Below are positions 7,312 through 19,104 of a stretch of DNA of 30,499 bases, one piece after another (positions within the stretch are counted from its first letter, which is position 1; every line of letters begins with the position of its first letter). The notes beneath the pieces are model-generated. The model worked only from the letters and a program-made list of their open reading frames with translations, did not search any database and was not told the DNA's origin. The DNA is from a virus. The stretch is from positions 1-30,499 of IMG/VR virus record IMGVR_UViG_3300035663_000070. One strand, written 5' to 3'. The position numbers and the translations under genes were made by a program.

Positions 7312-7907
7312 TGCAAATTCCAGACAATATGGCTAAGCATATTCAAAAAATATTTGATGGTGAATATGATGTTCCATATGAAAATCCAAATCCAGTAATT
7401 CTAGATATCGGTGGTAATGTTGGTGGTTTTTGTTTATGGGCTAAAAAGCGTTGGGTTAATTCAAAAATCTATTCATATGAACCAATTAAAAAAAATTTTG
7501 AGTATTTAAAAACAAACACAAAAGATCTTGAAAATATCATGGTTATGAATCTTGCAATAGGTTCAAAAACAGAACAAAGAAGAATGTATTATGGAGCTCA
7601 TAATGTTGGTGAGTGCAGTTTTCAACACGGCGCTGAGCAGATTGAAGAAGGCGAAGATGTTTCTGTTATAGCAGCAAGCTTGCTGCCAAAAGCAAACATT
7701 GTGAAAATTGATACCGAAGGTGCTGAGATTGAGATACTAGAAAACATGGTTATCAAACCAGATGTTTATTTGATTGAATATCACTCAGCATATAACAGAA
7801 GAAGAATTGATAATATACTGTATGACTACACTTTAATAGATGCAGATATTGCTCATCCAGACTATGGTATTGTAAAGTATGCTTTATCAAGTAAATTGAT
7901 AGTGTAG
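7311..7907 (+). CDS. FkbM-type SAM-dependent methyltransferase
   Basis: 198 residues. The SAM site VILDIGGNVGGFCLW (residues about 29-43) is followed by the acidic loop YSYEPIKKNFEYL and by the FkbM hallmark VKIDTEGAEIEILENM. The ATG at 7311 shares its A with the previous stop, with AAGGG upstream; an alternative GTG lies three bases earlier. Family members methylate hydroxyls on sugars or small molecules. With the oxygenases nearby and the glycosyltransferase at 1352, it fits a set of genes that modify a glycan, a base or a protein. The substrate is unknown. Confidence 0.82.
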   Translation: MQIPDNMAKHIQKIFDGEYDVPYENPNPVILDIGGNVGGFCLWAKKRWVNSKIYSYEPIKKNFEYLKTNTKDLENIMVMNLAIGSKTEQRRMYYGAHNVGECSFQHGAEQIEEGEDVSVIAASLLPKANIVKIDTEGAEIEILENMVIKPDVYLIEYHSAYNRRRIDNILYDYTLIDADIAHPDYGIVKYALSSKLIV

Positions 7908-12160: not shown

Positions 12161-12640
12161 ATGGCAACGAAAAAAGCAAGCGCAAAAATCACGGTCAAGG
12201 TTTCGGCAAAAACCGAAATGACCAAAATCACGGGCAAAAACACCAAAAACGCTACAGCAGGGGTCAAGCAATTTTACACCGACAAGCCTGCCGAATTGTT
12301 GATCGGTTTGCTCGCCAGCGTTTCGGGTCAAAAAATCATTGACAAGGATCTACGGGTCGCCAGCAAAAATAACGCCAGCGCTCGCCGATCATGGTGTGTC
12401 ATGAATAAGGCTGTGAAGGTTGATTGGCTCGCTGTTCAGAAAATTGACGGTGTGAAGGCTGGCAAGGCTACGCCAGCAGATCGCCCCGACAATTCGGTAC
12501 GGGCTCGGATCCATTCCCTACGCTCGGTGATCCCAAACGCCAAAAAAGTGGGCTATGTCCGAGTGCTTGACGCTTACACCGCCAAGAAAAACCCGACACA
12601 CCCCGACAGCCAAAAGGTGTATGTCTATCGGATCGCTTGA
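12161..12640 (+). CDS. Basic protein, paralog of 13234 (family A)
   Basis: 159 residues from the ATG at 12161; the ORF extends upstream to 12065, but only this ATG has an AAGGGG site and matches the paralog. The N-terminus is Lys/Ala/Thr/Val-rich and low complexity (KKASAKITVKVSAKTE). The conserved part includes GVKQFYTDKPAELLIGLLA, RVASKNNASARRSWCVMNK, DRPDNSVRARIHSL and KKVGYVRVLDAYTA, ending VYVYRIA. The basic, Arg-rich blocks suggest nucleic-acid binding. The codon use is clearly G+C-richer than in the flanks. No named family recognised. Confidence 0.7.
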   Translation: MATKKASAKITVKVSAKTEMTKITGKNTKNATAGVKQFYTDKPAELLIGLLASVSGQKIIDKDLRVASKNNASARRSWCVMNKAVKVDWLAVQKIDGVKAGKATPADRPDNSVRARIHSLRSVIPNAKKVGYVRVLDAYTAKKNPTHPDSQKVYVYRIA

Positions 12641-12899: not shown

Positions 12900-13188
12900 G
12901 CTTTGCACCAAGCCGACCATGTGGTTACATGTGTGTAATTTTAGTGCGTGAAATCTTTATGGGAGCGTAAAATTACACGAGTGTAAAATTACACGGCGGG
13001 CGGGTGTGGAGCTCCCCAAGTATGTAGGAGATCACACCCGTTGCGATATCGCAACACTATGTACCATTTTTAGTACACGATTGTAATGTTACATGAGTGT
13101 ACCTTTACGGGTACATTATGTAATATTAGATTGCGTTGCCTTTACGCAACACATGTGTTGTGATTATGCAACAACGCATATAAAAAAA
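12900..13188. repeat. Intergenic repeat region: 12-bp palindromes and GTTGC palindromes
   Basis: No gene. The left part holds TGTAA-N2-TTACA sites: 12934 (variant), 12966 and 12982 (16 bp apart, the second perfect), 13082 (perfect) and 13119 (variant). CGGGTGTG and CACACCCG (about 13010-13040) form a loose hairpin. The right part has a second family: GTTGCGATATCGCAAC (13040-13055), a perfect 16-bp palindrome; GTTGC/GCAAC (13135-13139 with 13146-13150); and CAACACATGTGTTG (13147-13160), also perfect. CTTTATGGG (12955-12963) recurs in later gaps. These look like binding sites for two different proteins. Confidence 0.6.
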
Positions 13189-13212
13189 ATACGGGGCATC
13201 TCTGCCCCGTAT
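13181..13212 (-). terminator. Intrinsic terminator of gene 13234
   Basis: ATACGGGGCA (13189-13198) and TGCCCCGTAT (13203-13212) form a 10-bp stem with a TCTC loop. On the minus strand it is followed by eight T residues. It ends the minus-strand gene 13234. Confidence 0.87.
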
Positions 13213-13233
13213 CTTATTTGCAACGCCTAAGCG

Positions 13234-13689
13234 TTACGCAATGCGGTATAGATATACCTTGTCTATGTCTGCATGCTTTGGGTTACGACTTGCAGTGTAT
13301 GCGTCAAGCACACGCACATAGCCGACACGCTTTGCACTTGCGTCTACTTTGGCAAGTGAGATAAGTCGTGCTCTCACTGCATTGTCTGGTCTATCGCCTT
13401 GTACCTTGTGTGTCACATCGGCACGAGATACCACTACTGCCTTGTTGTCAATGCACCACTGCCTACGGGCTTGTGCATTGTTCTTAGTTGCAACACGCAA
13501 CTCCATAGGGATTAGTGGTGACTTGACTACCAATGCTAAGAGTTGCCAGAATGCAACGGCTTTCGCATCGGAATAGTGTTGCTTCACGCCTTTGCGGGCA
13601 TTAGTGGTACGGGCTTTGTCTACCTTGTTTGCAGTAGCCGACACTGCAACTTTCACCGACACTTTGGCTTTCGCCTTACTTGTAGCCAT
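13234..13689 (-). CDS. Basic protein, paralog of 12161 (family A)
   Basis: 151 residues from the ATG at 13689, chosen for AAAGG upstream and agreement with the paralog; the ORF runs on to 13764 without a ribosome site. It shares GVKQ(F/H)Y, RVA(S/T)KNNA.ARR.WC, DRPDN.VRAR and VGYVRVLDAYTA..NP.H with 12161, ending VYLYRIA, but lacks an 11-residue insert. The N-terminus is the same Lys/Ala/Val-rich low-complexity type. It faces 12161 in convergent orientation. Probable nucleic-acid binding is inference; no named family recognised. Confidence 0.7.
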   Translation of the reverse strand: MATSKAKAKVSVKVAVSATANKVDKARTTNARKGVKQHYSDAKAVAFWQLLALVVKSPLIPMELRVATKNNAQARRQWCIDNKAVVVSRADVTHKVQGDRPDNAVRARLISLAKVDASAKRVGYVRVLDAYTASRNPKHADIDKVYLYRIA

Positions 13690-14095
13690 TGGACTACCTT
13701 TCATTACTGGTTGAGCGGAATTGCCCAACAACCAAATACTACTACCTTGTAAGACCAGGCGCAACCTTATTATTTATGCATTACCTTGCATAATTATTCA
13801 CTCTAATATTACATGGGCATACATGGTACACCGTGTAACATTACACCAGTGGTTGCATTACTCCGCTGTAACATTAGTTTAATAAATCTTTATGGGGCGG
13901 TCAGGCAGGTGTAAGTTTAGGCGCTATGCTAAACTTACACCTGCTGTAATATTAGACACCATGCCTTTATGTGGAGTACATATTTCTACCTGTAACTTTA
14001 GAAGCTTGTAACTTTACGAAATCTAATCTTACCAACCCCGAAAATAGGCTCAAAAATAGTCTAAAATTACCTCTATTATTACACGAGGATTTGAT
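13690..14095. promoter_or_regulatory. Divergent regulatory region with operator-like array, unit A
   Basis: It lies between minus gene 13234 and plus gene 14149. On the 13234 side TTATGCA/TGCATAA (13774-13780 with 13787-13793) forms a 7-bp inverted repeat. Toward 14149 there are 12-bp sites at 13802, 13834 (perfect), 13867, 13945, and 13991 and 14007 (16 bp apart). A perfect 16-bp inverted repeat, GCAGGTGTAAGTTTAG (13905-13920) with its complement (13929-13944), has an 8-nt loop. CCTTTATG follows at 13963. The last 42 bases (14049-14090) are nearly repeated at 15389-15430. Confidence 0.6.
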
Positions 14096-14152
14096 ATGCT
14101 CATTGTGTCGGTAATAATGCCGACCAATAATCCGAAGGGTAAAATTACATGA
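14096..14152 (+). CDS. Possible 18-residue leader peptide
   Basis: The ATG at 14096 follows GAGGAT, and the frame reads 18 codons (MLIVSVIMPTNNPKGKIT) to a TGA that overlaps the ATG of gene 14149 (ATGA). Translation of this short frame would carry ribosomes straight onto the 14149 start and through the 12-bp site that sits between. Short frames arise by chance, so this is a weak call resting on the ribosome site and the exact overlap. Confidence 0.3.
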   Translation: MLIVSVIMPTNNPKGKIT

Positions 14153-14505
14153 CCACCGAATTCCAAAAGAAAATGCTCTACCTAAATGAGAGCCTTTGCA
14201 CCGTTACAGAAATTTTCACTACTGTAACTTTTGACATACTGGAAATTGACTTTGACTATGTGACTGACGGTTGCGACTATGCCGATAGCGTTACCAACCT
14301 TGCAAAATTACTGGAGGGTAAAGTTACAGCAGACGATATGCCTATGGATAATCGTGACTGGGTATCCACCGTGTTAGTCAATTCACTTGACCTAGTGATT
14401 AGCCTTGACCGCATGAGTGAAAAAGTTTCGCACATTGTCGGGCAGGACTTGTCTTTGCCAACTGACGCATTTCGCCAACTAATCGCAGAATTAGCCAACT
14501 CATAA
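14149..14505 (+). CDS. Acidic helical protein of unknown function
   Basis: 118 residues, acidic, mostly helical, with repeated hydrophobic heptads (ESLCTVTEIFTTVTFDILEI and STVLVNSLDLVISLDRMSEKV). No family recognised. GAAGGG lies upstream of the ATG, and between them is a 12-bp site (GGTAAAATTACA, 14138-14149) ending on the A of the ATG. Two more sites fall inside the coding sequence (14223 and 14317). It ends with ATAAATTACAAG immediately at the stop. It is the first of the plus-strand single-gene units. Confidence 0.62.
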   Translation: MTTEFQKKMLYLNESLCTVTEIFTTVTFDILEIDFDYVTDGCDYADSVTNLAKLLEGKVTADDMPMDNRDWVSTVLVNSLDLVISLDRMSEKVSHIVGQDLSLPTDAFRQLIAELANS

Positions 14506-14526
14506 ATTACAAGGGAGTAAAATTAC

Positions 14527-14619
14527 ATGAGCATCATCAAAATTATCTACGGGGTATTAGTCCTTTGGTCATGGCTAATCCTGCCAGTAGCACTTGCGTG
14601 GTACTTTGAGCGAGACTAA
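14527..14619 (+). CDS. 30-residue membrane micro-protein
   Basis: MSIIKIIYGVLVLWSWLILP and then VALAWYFERD: nearly the whole protein is one membrane helix. AAGGGAG precedes the start, and a 12-bp site (AGTAAAATTACA, 14516-14527) abuts the ATG exactly as in genes 14149 and 14895. The stop is embedded in another site (CTAAAGTTACA, 14616-14626). Terminator 14641 follows. It may be co-transcribed with 14149. Confidence 0.6.
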   Translation: MSIIKIIYGVLVLWSWLILPVALAWYFERD

Positions 14620-14640
14620 AGTTACAAGCAAGTAAGATAA

Positions 14641-14666
14641 GCCCCCGCCAAAAGCGGGGGCTTTTT
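14641..14666 (+). terminator. Intrinsic terminator after 14527
   Basis: GCCCCCGC (14641-14648) pairs with GCGGGGGC (14654-14661), loop CAAAA, then TTTTTC. Confidence 0.92.
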
Positions 14667-14894
14667 CTTTGCCTGGTCTAAAATTACACGGCTGTAAAAT
14701 TACAGGCAGGTGTAACTTTTGCGCTTCTCTAAAAGTTACACCTGCTGTAATATTACAAAGCTAACCTTTATGTTGAATATGCTTATGTAAAGTTACATAC
14801 CTACCCAAAAACAAATACAAAAACTAATCCAAATACCTGCTATGCTGTACTTGTTGCTCACGAGAGCGACACTTACACAGAAGGGTAAAGTTAC
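14667..14894 (+). promoter_or_regulatory. Operator-like array, unit B, upstream of 14895
   Basis: Sites at 14677 and 14693 are 16 bp apart. A perfect 15-bp inverted repeat follows: GCAGGTGTAACTTTT (14706-14720) with its complement (14731-14745) and a 10-nt loop. A perfect 12-bp site at 14746 comes next, then CCTTTATG (about 14765) and TATGCT (about 14778-14783, a good -10). A perfect site at 14786 lies where the transcript would start. A last site, 14884-14895, ends on the ATG. Sites thus flank and overlap the presumed promoter. Confidence 0.6.
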
Positions 14895-15155
14895 ATGAAC
14901 ACTTACGAGGTTAGTTTCCAGTTTGAGCAAGGTGAGTTGGAATGGTGCGACAGCATGCTTTACGATGCATCGGACATCAAGGACTTGATCAAGGAAGTCC
15001 GCAAAGACATCAACGCATTCAAGGCAGACTTCAAGGGTCGGAAGGGTTACTCAATGAAGGTGATCTTTGCACAGCAACACGAAGAAGAAGGTGTACTGGA
15101 AGAAGGCGAAGAAGACATCACCGATGAGTTTCCAGAGTCAATGCTCGCTGACTAA
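14895..15155 (+). CDS. Small acidic protein of unknown function
   Basis: 86 residues. The N-terminal half (NTYEVSFQFEQGELEWCDSM) predicts beta-strands, a central helix is rich in K and D (IKDLIKEVRKDINAFKADF), and the tail is very acidic (EEEGVLEEGEEDITDEFPES). The charge pattern recalls DNA-mimic or protein-inhibitor proteins, but no family is recognised. Start: AAGGG plus a 12-bp site abutting the ATG. The stop is followed at once by another site and by terminator 15173, so it is a single-gene unit. Confidence 0.65.
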   Translation: MNTYEVSFQFEQGELEWCDSMLYDASDIKDLIKEVRKDINAFKADFKGRKGYSMKVIFAQQHEEEGVLEEGEEDITDEFPESMLAD

Positions 15156-15172
15156 AATTACAAGCGAGTAAG

Positions 15173-15203
15173 AAAACCCCTGCGCCCTCCGCAGGGGTTT
15201 TTC
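15173..15203 (+). terminator. Intrinsic terminator after 14895
   Basis: CCCCTGCG (15177-15184) pairs with CGCAGGGG (15190-15197) around CCCTC, extended by A-T pairs and followed by TTTTTC. Confidence 0.9.
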
Positions 15204-15440
15204 TTTGCCCCCGTTTTCTAAAGTTACATGCCTGTAAAATTACAGGCGGGCGTAATATTTGAGCTTCACCAAATATTACGCCCGCAGTAACATTAGACCC
15301 TTGTAAGATTAGTTTAGTGTAAGTTTATGAAAGTAATATTACCAACCATGTTTTATCGTAATAGTAATGTTACTTAGCCTTTATATACCTCAAAAATTGC
15401 CTAAAATTACTTCTATTATTACACGAGGATAGGTTAGTAT
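15204..15440 (+). promoter_or_regulatory. Operator-like array, unit C, upstream of 15441
   Basis: Sites at 15217 and 15233 are 16 bp apart. A perfect 16-bp inverted repeat, GCGGGCGTAATATTTG (15246-15261) with its complement (15270-15285), has an 8-nt loop. Variant sites follow at 15286, 15302, 15318, 15332 and 15363, some again 16 bp apart. ATTAGTTTAGT (15308-15318) recurs upstream of 16403. The last 42 bases before the ribosome site (15389-15430) match 14049-14090 at 39 of 42 positions. Confidence 0.6.
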
Positions 15441-15938
15441 ATGGTTATGACTAATTATCAGAGAAACCCATACCCTTATATTACAGCCGACCTTGTAGAT
15501 GATATCTGCGAGATGTATGACGATGGCGTACCGCCTGCAGAAATTGCCGACTGGTTCGGTCTGCGTAAAGTTACAGTCAAGGAACTTTTGAAAGATGTAT
15601 TCCCTACCGATATTTACGGCAACCTATTGGTTATAGGTAGGGGTAAAGGTGGGCGAGTAGTCCTGCCTAAAATTACAGAGCCCGACATTTTCGCTTGTCA
15701 ATTAGCGTTGCTGAAATCTATCGGGGATAATGCGGTGCATGAATTCTTTGAGAAGGTTAGGGAAAATTACCCTACAGTAACTTTAGCAATAGAGAATACG
15801 CCTGTCTATAACGATTTCTACACTACGCCTGAATTAGAAATTGAGACCGACATAGAGACCGACTGGGTATATGGCAAAGAGGGTGGGCTATCATGGGCGC
15901 TAGAGCATAGCCAGGAATACAGCGAACGGCTCGTGTAA
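15441..15938 (+). CDS. Putative helix-turn-helix DNA-binding protein
   Basis: 165 residues. LVDDICEMYDDGVPPAEIAD followed by WFGLRKVTVKELL (about residues 18-50) is a clear helix-turn-helix of the kind seen in phage regulators and resolvase C-termini. The C-terminal part is acidic and not recognised. Two 12-bp sites lie inside the gene (15564 and 15666), and one (15934) spans its stop. As the only obvious HTH protein inside the repeat region, it is a candidate to bind the palindromes. That is inference. An in-frame ATG six bases downstream is also possible. Confidence 0.65.
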   Translation: MVMTNYQRNPYPYITADLVDDICEMYDDGVPPAEIADWFGLRKVTVKELLKDVFPTDIYGNLLVIGRGKGGRVVLPKITEPDIFACQLALLKSIGDNAVHEFFEKVRENYPTVTLAIENTPVYNDFYTTPELEIETDIETDWVYGKEGGLSWALEHSQEYSERLV

Positions 15939-16402
15939 AGTTACACACGAGTAAAGTTACACACCAGTAAAGTTACCAAGCTGTAAAATTACAGAGCTTG
16001 GGGCTGGTGTAAGTTTTGCGCTCTACTAAAACTTACACCAGATGTAATATTACCCGTGTGTATCATTAGTTTAGTATGTTTTATGGATGTAACATTACCT
16101 GATCTCACCTTTACGGAGATGTAACTTTACACTCGTGTAACTTTACGACCCCCGATCTAGGCGATCTCGCCGCTCTGTGTAACATTAGCCCCGATCATGT
16201 AATATTAGAATTTCTCGTGTAACAATAGACTTGTAACCATATTGTAACAATGTCGGTGATATATCTCATATGGGCATTGGGTTTGCGGGCATTGTTACGA
16301 TCTGATTACCTTGCGATCTATTGCCCTATCCATTATCGTAATGAATGTCAAAGCAATACCGCCGAGACACACTCTACGGAGTGAGATCACTAAGGAATAA
16401 CC
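15934..16402 (+). repeat. Operator-like array, unit D: four tandem 12-bp sites at 16-bp period
   Basis: Sites start at 15934, 15950, 15966 and 15982, an exact 16-bp period. CTGGTGTAAGTTTT (16004-16017) and its complement (16028-16041) form a 14-bp hairpin with a 10-nt loop. Sites follow at 16043, 16088, and 16120 and 16136 (16 bp). Those at 16178, 16198 and 16218 are 20 bp apart. Near the 16403 start CACTC/GAGTG (16370-16374 with 16379-16383) encloses TACG, a UNCG-type loop, then AAGGAAT. No terminator is seen right after 15441, so the HTH gene may read into this region. No other gene is seen here. Confidence 0.62.
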
Positions 16403-16684
16403 ATGTCAGCATTTGAATTTGAATTCATTGACGAAGGTTCAATGGAATTCACCCAACGAGGTCGCAAGTCTAATGTTCCACCAGCATTGGTTGAAGCGAT
16501 CAAGACCATGCCAAAGGGCAAGGGCGTTCGCCTGTCAGCCTTGAAGGTCAATGTCAAGTCAGCAACGGTCAAGACCGATAAGGCTCGGATCGGCGCAACC
16601 ATTCGCTCGGCAAGTGTTCAAGCGAAGGTCAAAGTGCAAATTCTCTGGTCGCCAGATGGTGTGCCGCAGATCGTGCGCAAGTAA
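16403..16684 (+). CDS. RGRKS-family small basic protein (paralog 1)
   Basis: 93 residues. The N-terminal FEFEFIDEGSMEFTQRGRKS is shared with the proteins at 17254 and 18049. The middle is basic (KGKGVRLSALKVNVKSATVK), then KARIGATIRSAS, then a beta-rich end, VKVQILWSPDGVPQIVRK. RGR is the core of AT-hook-like minor-groove motifs, so DNA binding is plausible, but no family is recognised. The start has AAGGAAT. The stop is followed by a 12-bp site and terminator 16709: a single-gene unit. Confidence 0.68.
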   Translation: MSAFEFEFIDEGSMEFTQRGRKSNVPPALVEAIKTMPKGKGVRLSALKVNVKSATVKTDKARIGATIRSASVQAKVKVQILWSPDGVPQIVRK

Positions 16685-16708
16685 CTAAAGTTACACGCCC
16701 GTAAGAGT

Positions 16709-16739
16709 AGCCTGTCTCGTAACCCCTGCGAGACAGGCT
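16709..16739 (+). terminator. Hairpin terminator after 16403
   Basis: AGCCTGTCTCG (16709-16719) pairs perfectly with CGAGACAGGCT (16729-16739), 9-nt loop, followed by CTCTATTATT. The T-tract is weak, so termination may be partial. Confidence 0.75.
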
Positions 16740-17090
16740 CTCTATTATTACACGACAGTAAAATTACATGGTTGTAATTTTTTTTGCCCAAAGTCCGTGT
16801 AATATTACAGGCGGGGCGGGTGTAACTTTTGCTCTCCACTAAAAGTTACACCCGTTGTAATATTACAGGAGCTCTCACTATTTTTAGTAACATTACGGAA
16901 CACCGCCTGGGCTCTCTGTAACTTTACAGGAATGTAATTCTAGACCTTTATCTTTACGGTATAAGCTTCTGTAACATTAGATGTAACTTTAGGGGATTAT
17001 GTCCCCAAATAGACCCGAAAAAAAGTTCTGTAATATTAGAAAAGCTGAGTTTTTGGGTTCGGCATTGGCTAGCCTTTGGGTTAGCGGTTG
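16740..17090 (+). promoter_or_regulatory. Operator-like array, unit E
   Basis: CTCTATTATTACACGA (16740-16755) repeats the core of the 42-bp element. 12-bp sites start at 16757, 16773 (16 bp), 16798 and 16856 (both perfect), 16886, 16917 (perfect) and 16933 (16 bp), 16970, 16982 and 17029. The hairpin CGGGTGTAACTTTT (16817-16830) with its complement (16841-16854) has a 10-nt loop. CCTTTAT at 16945 is followed by TATAAGCTT, aligning with the -10 region of unit B. No ORF is seen. Confidence 0.58.
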
Positions 17091-17163
17091 ACCCCAGCCG
17101 TGAGGTACGGCAAGTCGGTAATTTTAGACTTGTAGGCTCACGGTGTCCGCACTGAAGTTGGGG
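17091..17163 (+). ncRNA. Candidate structured RNA or leader element
   Basis: Nested pairings enclose one another: CCCCA/TGGGG (17092-17096 with 17159-17163), CCGTGAG/CTCACGG (17098-17104 with 17137-17143) and CAAGTC/GACTTG (17111-17116 with 17127-17132). The innermost loop holds a 12-bp-type site (GGTAATTTTAGA). GCCGT/ACGGC (17097-17101 with 17107-17111) is an alternative. It lies about 90 bases before the 17254 ATG. It could be a leader RNA structure or a DNA-level operator. Confidence 0.4.
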
Positions 17164-17253
17164 ATGGGTAGGTAGTGTACCTTCCAAAAATTACACTGAG
17201 GTAACACTAGGCATAGTGTTATTGCCAAATCAAAACTTACAAGGATGTAACTA

Positions 17254-17550
17254 ATGGCTGACGATTTCTCGTTTGAGTTCATTGGTGAAAACGAACTTGA
17301 GTTTACTAGCCGTGGTCGTAAGTCAACCGTTCCACCTCAACTTGTTGAGGCGTTGCGTAAACTTACACCAAAGCAAGCGCTCAAGTTGACTTCCTTTTCG
17401 GTTGACATGAAGTCTGCCAAAGCAAAGACTGATAAAGCCCGTTACGGTGCTATTATCCGTTCTGCCAGCAAGCAGGCTAATGTTACAGTAACCATCATGT
17501 GGTCGTCATCAGGCGTACCGCAAGTGGTTCGCACCGAAAAGCGCAAGTAA
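17254..17550 (+). CDS. RGRKS-family small basic protein (paralog 2)
   Basis: 98 residues. FSFEFIGENELEFTSRGRKS, then TVPPQLVEALRKLTPKQALK, KARYGAIIRSASKQA and VTIMWSSSGVPQVVR align end to end with the 16403 protein. There are no indels of note in the core. A pair of sites (17230 and 17246, 16 bp apart) covers the ribosome-binding region, with AAGGA between them. Two sites fall within the gene (17356 and 17476) and one spans its stop (17546). Function unknown; probable DNA-binding protein by its basic charge and RGR motif. Confidence 0.68.
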   Translation: MADDFSFEFIGENELEFTSRGRKSTVPPQLVEALRKLTPKQALKLTSFSVDMKSAKAKTDKARYGAIIRSASKQANVTVTIMWSSSGVPQVVRTEKRK

Positions 17551-17626
17551 AGTTACACCATAGTAACTCAACTCTGAGCGTCTGACGGTAAGTACGGAGC
17601 GTCTAAAATTACGCTTGGCAACAGAA

Positions 17627-17718
17627 CCCCAGCAAGCGGGCATAATATTCCAGCCCTGTAACAGTAGGCATACTGATTACAGCGTTGTCTGAATAACCCC
17701 GCTTGTTGGGGATATTTT
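17627..17718 (+). terminator. Long-loop terminator after 17254
   Basis: CCCCAGCAAGCGGG (17627-17640) pairs with CCCGCTTGTTGGGG (17698-17711), 13 pairs plus one G-T, and is followed by ATATTTTTTT. The 57-nt loop contains two imperfect 12-bp sites (17641 and 17657, 16 bp apart), so protein binding could affect folding or termination. Confidence 0.7.
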
Positions 17719-17989
17719 TTTGCCTACCCTAAAGTTACACGGCTGTAAAGTTACAGAAGCTACCTGGTCGTTCTAAAGTTACACGGGGCTGCCTGGCTGT
17801 CCTGTAATATTACAGCGGGCGGGTGTAATTTTTGGTCTATTCAAAAAATTACACCCATGTAATATTACACGAAACCTTTATCTAATTGAGTATGCTTATC
17901 TGTATCTTTACATTAGAACAAATCCAATTCCGAATTCTAATTCAAATCTTTATGTGAACCTTTATGACAACCTTATTTTTAGACAAAAA
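17719..17989. promoter_or_regulatory. Operator-like array, unit F
   Basis: Sites start at 17728 and 17744 (16 bp), 17772, 17803 (perfect), 17842 and 17858 (16 bp, the second perfect). The inverted repeat GGGTGTAATTTTT (17821-17833) with its partner ending in ACACCC (about 17843-17856) is the same kind of element as in units A-E. CCTTTATCT (17876-17884) then TATGCTTATC (17890-17899) aligns with unit B. No plus-strand gene follows; instead the minus gene 18049 converges from the right. The array may therefore be a remnant of a lost unit, or may act at a distance. Confidence 0.55.
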
Positions 17990-18021
17990 AATAAGGCTTA
18001 GGTTTTACCCTAAGCCTTATT
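17984..18021 (-). terminator. Bidirectional-looking terminator of gene 18049
   Basis: AATAAGGCTTAGG (17990-18002) and CCTAAGCCTTATT (18009-18021) form a 13-bp stem with a 6-nt loop. On the minus strand it ends in a run of T. It closes the 18049 gene. Confidence 0.87.
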
Positions 18022-18048
18022 GAAATGAGAGACTATAGTTTTAGCTAT

Positions 18049-18384
18049 TTATTTAGTTTTACCCTTAACTGAAGTAAAACGAATAGCTGGAACTGTTTCC
18101 TTATGCCAACGGATTTCTGAACCATAACCCAAATTCTTAGCCAATGTACGAAGCATTGCTGCAACTTTAGCCTTATAGTTTTTGATATCCTTAATGTCAG
18201 TCAAATCCGAAGGAATTGCCAAACTTGAAATGATAACAAATTGCTTTTTTGCAACTGAATCATTTTTCTTGATCATTTCCTTAACTGAATTAACAAACTT
18301 TTCGTCAAGATTAGATTTACGCCCTCTCTTAGCGAATTCCATTTCATTTTCGTTAATAAATTCAAATTGCATTTCTTGTTCCAA
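18049..18384 (-). CDS. RGRKS-family protein (paralog 3), AT-rich and divergent
   Basis: 111 residues from a TTG at 18384. The TTG is chosen because AGGA lies seven bases upstream and because the resulting N-terminus (ten residues through FEFI) matches the length in the 17254 paralog; an ATG at 18372 is the alternative. FEFINENEMEFAKRGRKS is shared with 16403 and 17254. The rest is longer and diverged (a 15-residue insert, KKQFVIISSLAIPSDL), with IRWHKETVPAIRF in place of the WS.DGVPQ end. Its base composition is that of the AT-rich right flank, unlike its paralogs. Confidence 0.66.
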   Translation of the reverse strand: MEQEMQFEFINENEMEFAKRGRKSNLDEKFVNSVKEMIKKNDSVAKKQFVIISSLAIPSDLTDIKDIKNYKAKVAAMLRTLAKNLGYGSEIRWHKETVPAIRFTSVKGKTK

Positions 18385-19104
18385 TGTTTTATCCTATTCT
18401 TTGTTTAATTGTTTATTTGATTATTTATTTATTTGAGAAATTAATCTCTCATTTCGTTAACCATTCTATCGTCTAATCCAATGAAAACCAACCTTGCCCA
18501 AAAATTAACCTGAAAAATATTAGATCAGTGATCTATTGTTTTACCCATTTTTTTATCCGTTTGTTGCCCTGTAATATTACACACCATTGTAATAATACGC
18601 CCTTGTAATATTACATGGAGTATATATAAAAAAATAGGTAAAGGTTTATCTAATCTTTTAGATAAACCAATACCTTTATGGGACATCTATTATTCAACTA
18701 GTTATCTGAGGTCTTACATCATTGTAATTTCAAGCTAATGCCTGATCTATTAGGCAGACCTAATTCACCCCCAAATTCAATTACGAATTCTTGGATATAA
18801 TTGTTCACTAATATCCTCTTGATATATCACACTAAATAATTTACATAGATGATGATATAAATTTTGGGGAATATATATATTTATCTTTCTAGAACCTTTA
18901 TAAGGGGCTATATAGGGTCTCATTGTATGTCGCATATAAAAATCCTAAGGAAATAGGGTATATTTACCTTATTTTGTATGGTTTTCGTATAAAACACCTA
19001 TGTATTTAATAGATTTTACACCTTTATTGAGCGTTTACCACAACAAGTTAGGTATACGGTATGGCTTTCTTTAGGTATACGGGTAGCTTATTCCTAGACA
19101 ATTC
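18385..19104. promoter_or_regulatory. AT-rich intergenic region with last palindrome array
   Basis: No gene is supported. 18570-18615 holds three sites (18570 and 18604 perfect, 18588 imperfect; the last two 16 bp apart). A hairpin follows, GGTTTATCTAA/TTAGATAAACC (18643-18653 with 18658-18668), extended by AGGTA/TACCT outside. Then comes CCTTTATGGG, the same order as in units A-F. Beyond 18700 the sequence is AT-rich; TTAGGTATACGG occurs twice (about 19048 and 19070) as a direct repeat. Promoters for the minus gene 18049 should lie near 18390-18450. Confidence 0.5.

What the first reader, a model, noticed from the sequence alone, without database searches (positions are those of the whole stretch)
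15934..15993. Palindromes are phased at exactly 16 bp
Four sites start at 15934, 15950, 15966 and 15982. The same 16-bp step separates pairs at 12966/12982, 13991/14007, 14677/14693, 15217/15233, 16120/16136, 16757/16773, 16917/16933, 17230/17246, 17728/17744, 17842/17858 and 18588/18604. A second spacing of 20 bp occurs at 16178/16198/16218. Sixteen bp is about one and a half helical turns, placing neighbours on opposite DNA faces, which suggests a cooperative polymer of dimers. The strict spacing with variable 4-bp linkers argues for selection on the site grid.
Basis: seen in the sequence. Interest (0 to 1): 0.75.

Follow-up and report, generated by a model that had tools for sequence, protein, structure and literature searches.

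The report
Phased palindrome array in uncultured phages
A group of uncultured bacterial viruses, probably of actinobacteria, packs tens of copies of one short palindromic DNA word, often exactly 16 bases apart, around a block of small unknown genes; it looks like a landing strip for a virus-made DNA-binding protein that packs side by side, although that protein has not been identified.

Summary
The window has 68 STAANNTTAS palindromes; 66 lie in 12.9-18.65 kb. Ten strict pairs are 16 bp apart (0.8 expected; no random placement exceeded 6). Five of the listed pairs have decayed partners. The 20-bp spacing is not significant.

Relatives extend the pattern. A protein search and an independent DNA-only search reached the same phage group. 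Each record has one cluster together with 2-3 copies of an unknown ~95-aa "RGRKS" protein. TAA/TTA cores are conserved (0.3% versus 5% substitution); centres and linkers drift. In one set of genomes TTAC-N6-GTAA is nearly as sharp a signal (128) as the palindrome (154), giving the 16-bp repeat. A second set (L126, L127, L133) keeps the palindrome but spaces neighbours 17-19 bp apart. So the grid is lineage-specific, not universal. The base next to TAA is lineage-specific too (G in 26/27 L132 sites, 5/66 here).

Best reading: an operator array for a cooperative dimeric phage regulator, covering an early small-gene region like the terminal repeat of Stanwilliamsviridae. Sites in convergent gene gaps, strand-polar CTTTATG and covarying hairpins show that simple promoter operators are not the whole story. 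The binder is unidentified.

The parts
12935..18614 (.). cluster of 66 STAANNTTAS palindromes (first core to last core)
   Evidence: 66 of 68 sites of the window; single cluster per genome in relatives
15934..15993 (.). run of four palindromes at exact 16-bp steps, the first overlapping the stop codon of the HTH gene
   Evidence: sequence; run conserved in L125 at 7532-7580
12966..12993 (.). strict 16-bp pair
13991..14018 (.). strict 16-bp pair
14677..14704 (.). strict 16-bp pair upstream of a hairpin
15217..15244 (.). strict 16-bp pair upstream of a hairpin
   Evidence: cores 15287 and 15303
16120..16147 (.). strict 16-bp pair
17728..17755 (.). strict 16-bp pair, in the convergent gap between RGRKS 2 and RGRKS 3
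13905..13944 (+). hairpin with GTAA/TTAC arms
14706..14745 (+). hairpin with GTAA/TTAC arms
15246..15285 (+). hairpin with GTAA/TTAC arms
16004..16041 (+). hairpin with GTAA/TTAC arms
16817..16854 (+). hairpin with GTAA/TTAC arms
17817..17856 (+). hairpin with GTAA/TTAC arms
12161..12640 (+). RPENxVR-family protein A, basic N-terminus, unknown function
   Evidence: family in every lineage examined, beside the array
13234..13689 (-). RPENxVR-family protein B
15441..15938 (+). 165-aa protein with a weak helix-turn-helix match; in window and L125, no counterpart seen in the clusters of L126, L132 and L133
16403..16684 (+). RGRKS protein 1 (93 aa)
17254..17550 (+). RGRKS protein 2 (98 aa)
18049..18372 (-). 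RGRKS protein 3 (107 aa)

Best explanation
The cluster is a multi-site operator array for a sequence-specific DNA-binding protein, probably phage-encoded. One dimer covers one TGTAA-NN-TTACA palindrome. Neighbouring dimers touch when sites are 16 bp apart in the window's relatives and about 17-19 bp in another set, so runs of 2-4 sites are filled cooperatively. The array occupies nearly every intergenic region of a block of small early-type genes, several with their own terminator, and would let one protein shut off or coordinate the whole block, including its own gene. Shown: site clustering, phase, selection on the core, recurrence of the spacing, association with the RGRKS and RPENxVR protein families. 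Inferred: dimer binding, cooperativity, a regulatory role, and that the binder belongs to one of those families (RGRKS preferred, about one chance in three).
For: 66 of 68 sites in one 5.7-kb block; 16-bp pairs 10 against 0.78, and significant in each of nine records. Pooled over six less redundant records, GTAA-N2-TTAC 154 and TTAC-N6-GTAA 128 against mostly 0-13 at nearby gaps. Core substitution 2/645 against 94/1840. Site density 1.3-2.8 per 100 bp in most gaps against 0.2 in coding DNA. Lineage-specific base after TAA across all sites of a genome, chi-square p 5e-15 window against L132, as expected when one trans-acting protein reads all sites. A DNA-only scan returns site-rich contigs of this phage group only; RGRKS genes in 10 of 10 records. 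A satellite triplet lies about 300 bp upstream of an operon elsewhere in the genome, conserved in several contigs.
Against: Sites are also dense in the convergent gap between RGRKS 2 and 3, which holds no annotated gene start. CTTTATG is strand-polar, 105 to 6, regardless of gene direction, and hairpin arms covary; neither is explained by operators. No protein of the block has a recognised DNA-binding family except a weak HTH match in one lineage. Promoter-like sites are not enriched. No binding data.
Confidence: 0.55

Rival explanations
1. The array is a centromere-, origin- or chromatin-like element: a protein spreads along the sites to pair, segregate, protect, condense or replicate phage DNA, and the small genes are incidental.
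For: One dense cluster per genome at a conserved place; sites in convergent gaps; strand-polar CTTTATG independent of gene direction; two exact DnaA boxes beside the cluster in L126 and L127; a perfect parS in the L133 cluster and near-parS palindromes in L150 and L170.
Against: No ParA-type ATPase in 10 records (several are fragments). DnaA boxes are absent beside the other clusters. Sites avoid coding DNA and recur per gene module, which segregation does not need.
Confidence: 0.22
2. What matters is folded single-stranded DNA or RNA: hairpins flanked by palindromes, one polarity, act as 3'-end RNA structures, single-strand promoters or recombination sites that shuffle gene cassettes; the palindromes are parts of larger stems.
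For: 44 hairpins with 18-20 nt between arms, inner pairs 78% formed with several pair types; folds far more stable than shuffles, flanking palindromes pairing with each other; gene gain and loss between L126 and L127 and between window and L125 breaks inside the modules.
Against: Most palindromes are not beside a hairpin and are conserved as a 10-bp core with a free centre, which is typical of protein sites. No tyrosine integrase in 10 records. Any two copies of a palindrome pair with each other by construction. Breakpoints in repeats are also expected from ordinary homologous recombination.
Confidence: 0.12
3. The sites and their phase are a by-product of recent duplication of intergenic modules, without function in the spacing.
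For: Some modules are recognisable copies (families D3, D4 and D15).
Against: Linkers differ in nearly every pair; the phase recurs in lineages whose cluster is mostly not alignable with the window; the core is under strong selection.
Confidence: 0.04

Closest known systems
Stoperators and operators of Cluster A mycobacteriophages L5, Bxb1 (PMC6550527)
   Same: 20-30 copies of one repressor site per genome, site consensus specific to each lineage, tracking repressor divergence
   Different: There the 13-bp sites are spread through the genome and oriented with transcription; here palindromes, one dense cluster, phased at 16 bp; repressor unknown here
SAS and ESAS elements of Cluster K mycobacteriophages (PMC3203893)
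   Same: Repeated short elements with inverted repeats placed in intergenic regions of many small phage genes, with subcluster-specific bases
   Different: SAS is an asymmetric 13-mer next to start codons, ESAS a 17-bp imperfect inverted repeat with variable spacer; here sites also follow genes and fill convergent gaps
Early small-gene terminal repeat of Stanwilliamsviridae (Streptomyces phage Yaboi)
   Same: Same order glycosyltransferase, reductase, portal; small genes with terminators and a repeat in many gaps
   Different: Yaboi's repeat is GCCGCCCCGGC, and it has only 3 STAANNTTAS sites
Conserved inverted repeats of phage phiC31 and its repressor (own knowledge, not tested)
   Same: Many palindromic repressor sites in the early region of an actinophage
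   Different: Different sequence and fewer, dispersed sites as far as I recall
MetJ/Arc-type tandem operators (own knowledge, not tested)
   Same: Short palindromic boxes in tandem at fixed spacing, bound cooperatively by neighbouring dimers
   Different: Met boxes repeat at 8 bp and are few per promoter; here a 16-bp period and up to 76 sites in one locus

Membership tests
Cluster A stoperator system | many copies of one lineage-specific site per genome | tested here: met
   15-76 sites per locus, lineage-specific base after TAA
Cluster A stoperator system | asymmetric site oriented with transcription and dispersed through the genome | tested here: not met
   palindromic sites, one cluster
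Cluster A stoperator system | cognate repressor and lysogeny | tested here: inconclusive
   no tyrosine integrase in 10 records, several of them fragments; repressor not identified
SAS/ESAS | site immediately upstream of start codons | tested here: not met
   three genes have a site between ribosome-binding region and ATG (14139, 14517, 14885), but sites equally follow genes and fill convergent gaps
ParABS partition | ParA-type ATPase encoded with the sites | tested here: not met
   PF13614: 0 of 10 records while all 14 controls match; other partition ATPases were not searched
Iteron origin with DnaA boxes | DnaA boxes and a Rep gene beside repeats | tested here: inconclusive
   exact DnaA boxes beside the cluster only in L126 and L127; Rep gene not searched
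Integron gene-cassette array | tyrosine integrase | tested here: not met
   PF00589: 0 of 10 records
Lsr2 proteins (for RGRKS) | Lsr2 C-terminal domain with RGR motif | tested here: inconclusive
   hhalign aligns RGRKS...PALVEAI with RGRISSEILEAY of Yaboi gp8 at 2% probability; no Pfam match
Stanwilliamsviridae | related terminase and conserved gene order | tested here: met
   terminase about 42% identical; glycosyltransferase, reductase, portal in the same order
Stanwilliamsviridae | long terminal repeat holding small early genes | not testable with these tools
   contigs are fragments without end repeats

The most novel reading that the evidence does not exclude
RGRKS proteins, with or without the RPENxVR partners, are a new kind of phage DNA-organising regulator that assembles side by side on a lineage-coded palindrome array, with inter-dimer spacing itself an evolving part of the code (16 bp in one set, 17-19 bp in another), coupling silencing of an early gene block to DNA architecture or inheritance.
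Probability: 0.25. Interest if true: 0.8.

Novelty: new variant of a known kind. Interest (0 to 1): 0.55.

Why it matters
It is a natural series of related genomes in which site sequence, site number and inter-site spacing have each shifted together across tens of copies, next to a small set of unknown proteins. That makes it a tractable system for asking how a cooperative DNA-binding protein and its array co-evolve, and it suggests a function for two unnamed protein families of uncultured phages. The open library searched holds no phage paper with the site TGTAATATTACA.

Tried and rejected
A loose spacing scan of all viral contigs was swamped by chance matches. A search of bacterial genomes with RGRKS protein 2 found nothing. 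Pfam, PHROGs and PADLOC gave no family for the cluster proteins, and named phages hold no relative of RGRKS protein 2 or of the block's DNA. The RGRKS model (pLDDT 81) and RPENxVR model (pLDDT 82) gave no convincing structural relative: no Foldseek match below E 0.1, best VIA Z 5.7 for RGRKS; the absence of a family from these lists excludes nothing. The 165-aa helix-turn-helix protein was dropped as common binder because it was seen only in window and L125. A K-to-R/Q change in RGRKS seemed at first to track the new site centre in L132, but L150 and L170 keep K with the same centre. TAATATTAC resembles the geminivirus nick site (own knowledge), but it is not in a hairpin loop and other centres are as common, so it was set aside. 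DnaA boxes, ParA and integrase were sought and do not support origin, ParABS or integron readings in general. Host not determined; terminase and reductase hits include many phages of actinobacteria. One script read the wrong protein file for P0006-P0008; that part of its output was ignored.

Full report
Observation. The window is a 30.5-kb virus record, probably a fragment. STAANNTTAS occurs 68 times, 66 of them in 12.9-18.65 kb. Ten strict pairs are exactly 16 bp apart against 0.78 expected; 5000 random placements never gave more than 6 at that spacing or 7 at any spacing up to 60 bp. The run at 15934 is as described. Five of the listed pairs have one or two decayed members, one strict pair (15286/15302) was missed, and the 20-bp spacing is not significant.

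Relatives. Searching with a small protein from the block found L125 (85-93% identical DNA over most of the shared region) and the more distant L126 and L127; an alignment added L128-L133. A DNA-only scan for two palindromes close together, with no protein information, returned 41 stretches. Those with ten or more sites belong to this group by RGRKS or RPENxVR genes or by being pieces of contigs already found; the others have at most six sites, and several of these are the 14-bp triplet of the same phages. Each of ten records tested carries two or three RGRKS genes, and the second family is present in the lineages examined. In the whole contigs the sites form one cluster.

Spacing. 16 bp is the commonest spacing in nine records, some of them near-duplicates. 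In six less redundant ones GTAA-N2-TTAC occurs 154 times and TTAC-N6-GTAA 128 times, with nearby gaps at most 16 and mostly below 6. TTAC-N6-GTAA is often intact where an outer half-site has decayed, as expected if the inner halves of neighbouring dimers matter. L126 and L133 keep N2 (59) but use N7-N8 rather than N6, intervals 17-19. L163 is mixed. A triplet about 300 bp upstream of an operon near the terminase gene is spaced 14 bp and conserved in several contigs. The spacing is therefore a lineage property, not a universal grid. I did not build a tree, so 'sets' here means shared spacing, not proven clades.

Selection. Between window and L125, TAA/TTA positions changed in 2 of 645 against 94 of 1840 in other intergenic DNA; centres (5.6%) and linkers (5.0%) changed like background. 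Over longer times the base after TAA is lineage-specific: a site with G there is seen in 26 of 27 in L132, 5 of 66 in the window, 5 of 63 in L133. Alignable flanks of L132 and window are 82-92% identical while most of the cluster is not alignable. A shift shared by all sites of a genome is what one trans-acting protein would impose, although gene conversion among modules could contribute.

Anatomy. Genes in the block are small and several are followed by a terminator. The recurrent intergenic module is: terminator, one or two palindromes, hairpin GGYGTAA...TTACRCC, palindrome, CTTTATG. The 44 hairpins found by their outer arms alone all have 18-20 nt between arms although 12-33 was allowed, and inner pairs covary. 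CTTTATG is on one strand 105 times and on the other 6 in nine clusters, also beside genes of opposite direction. Sites occur in the convergent gap between RGRKS 2 and 3, which has no annotated gene start, in all 11 loci examined. Promoter operators alone therefore do not explain the array.

Context. The terminase is about 42% identical to Streptomyces phages of the Yaboi and Coruscant type; glycosyltransferase, reductase and portal occur in the same order as in Yaboi. In Yaboi the corresponding end of the genome is a terminal repeat (the same gene set recurs at both ends) of small genes with terminators and a shared GCCGCCCCGGC repeat in many gaps. The cluster here is plausibly the equivalent early region; this is inference. 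No integrase or ParA-type ATPase was found.

Mechanism. I favour a cooperative dimeric regulator on a multi-operator array (0.55). Shown: sites, phase, selection, association. Inferred: dimer, cooperativity, regulation, identity of the binder. The main alternatives are an architectural, replication or inheritance role (0.22) and folded nucleic acid (0.12). The RGRKS proteins are modelled as a small alpha/beta domain after a less certain N-terminal arm bearing RGR; the RGR motif recalls Lsr2, but the profile comparison does not support membership.

Novelty. Phage genomes with tens of copies of one repressor site are known, as are repeated intergenic elements with inverted repeats in mycobacteriophages. 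The density, the exact and lineage-dependent phase, and the association with two unnamed protein families are, as far as the searched library shows, not described. I therefore call it a new variant of a known kind.

Noticed in passing
L133:7957-7972; L150:131-146; L170:10704-10719: Perfect bacterial parS palindrome TGTTTCACGTGAAACA inside the L133 cluster, just upstream of RGRKS 1, and parS-like TGTTCCAYRTGGAACA palindromes at the RGRKS 3 end of the L150 and L170 clusters. It could let the phage use host ParB.
   Followed up: partly
L138:2413-2450 (G001:97412-97449) and same place in L141, L145, L148, L151, L166, L167, L168, L175: Three palindromes at exact 14-bp steps about 300 bp upstream of an operon of unknown genes, conserved across contigs.
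   Followed up: partly
all clusters, e.g. window 12955, 13888, 13965, 14766, 17948, 17960, 18674: CTTTATG (ACCTTTATGG) is strongly enriched on one strand only, 105 to 6, regardless of the direction of neighbouring genes.
   Followed up: partly
NC_048730.1 (Streptomyces phage Yaboi) 1-11800: GCCGCCCCGGC-type repeat follows terminators in many gaps between small genes of the terminal repeat, perhaps the counterpart of the modules here.
   Followed up: partly
window around 18711-18730; same place in L126, L132, L133: ATTACANCATTGTAAT, a TTAC-N6-GTAA element, is kept just right of the cluster in the lineages read, including those that otherwise avoid N6.
   Followed up: no
L126:10828 and 10840; L127:11250 and 11262: Two exact DnaA boxes (TTATCCACA) 12 bp apart just right of the cluster, not seen in the other lineages.
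   Followed up: partly
L138:938-1390: A more distant RGRKS-like protein (RAGRKS) is encoded near the terminase gene, next to the 14-bp triplet.
   Followed up: no
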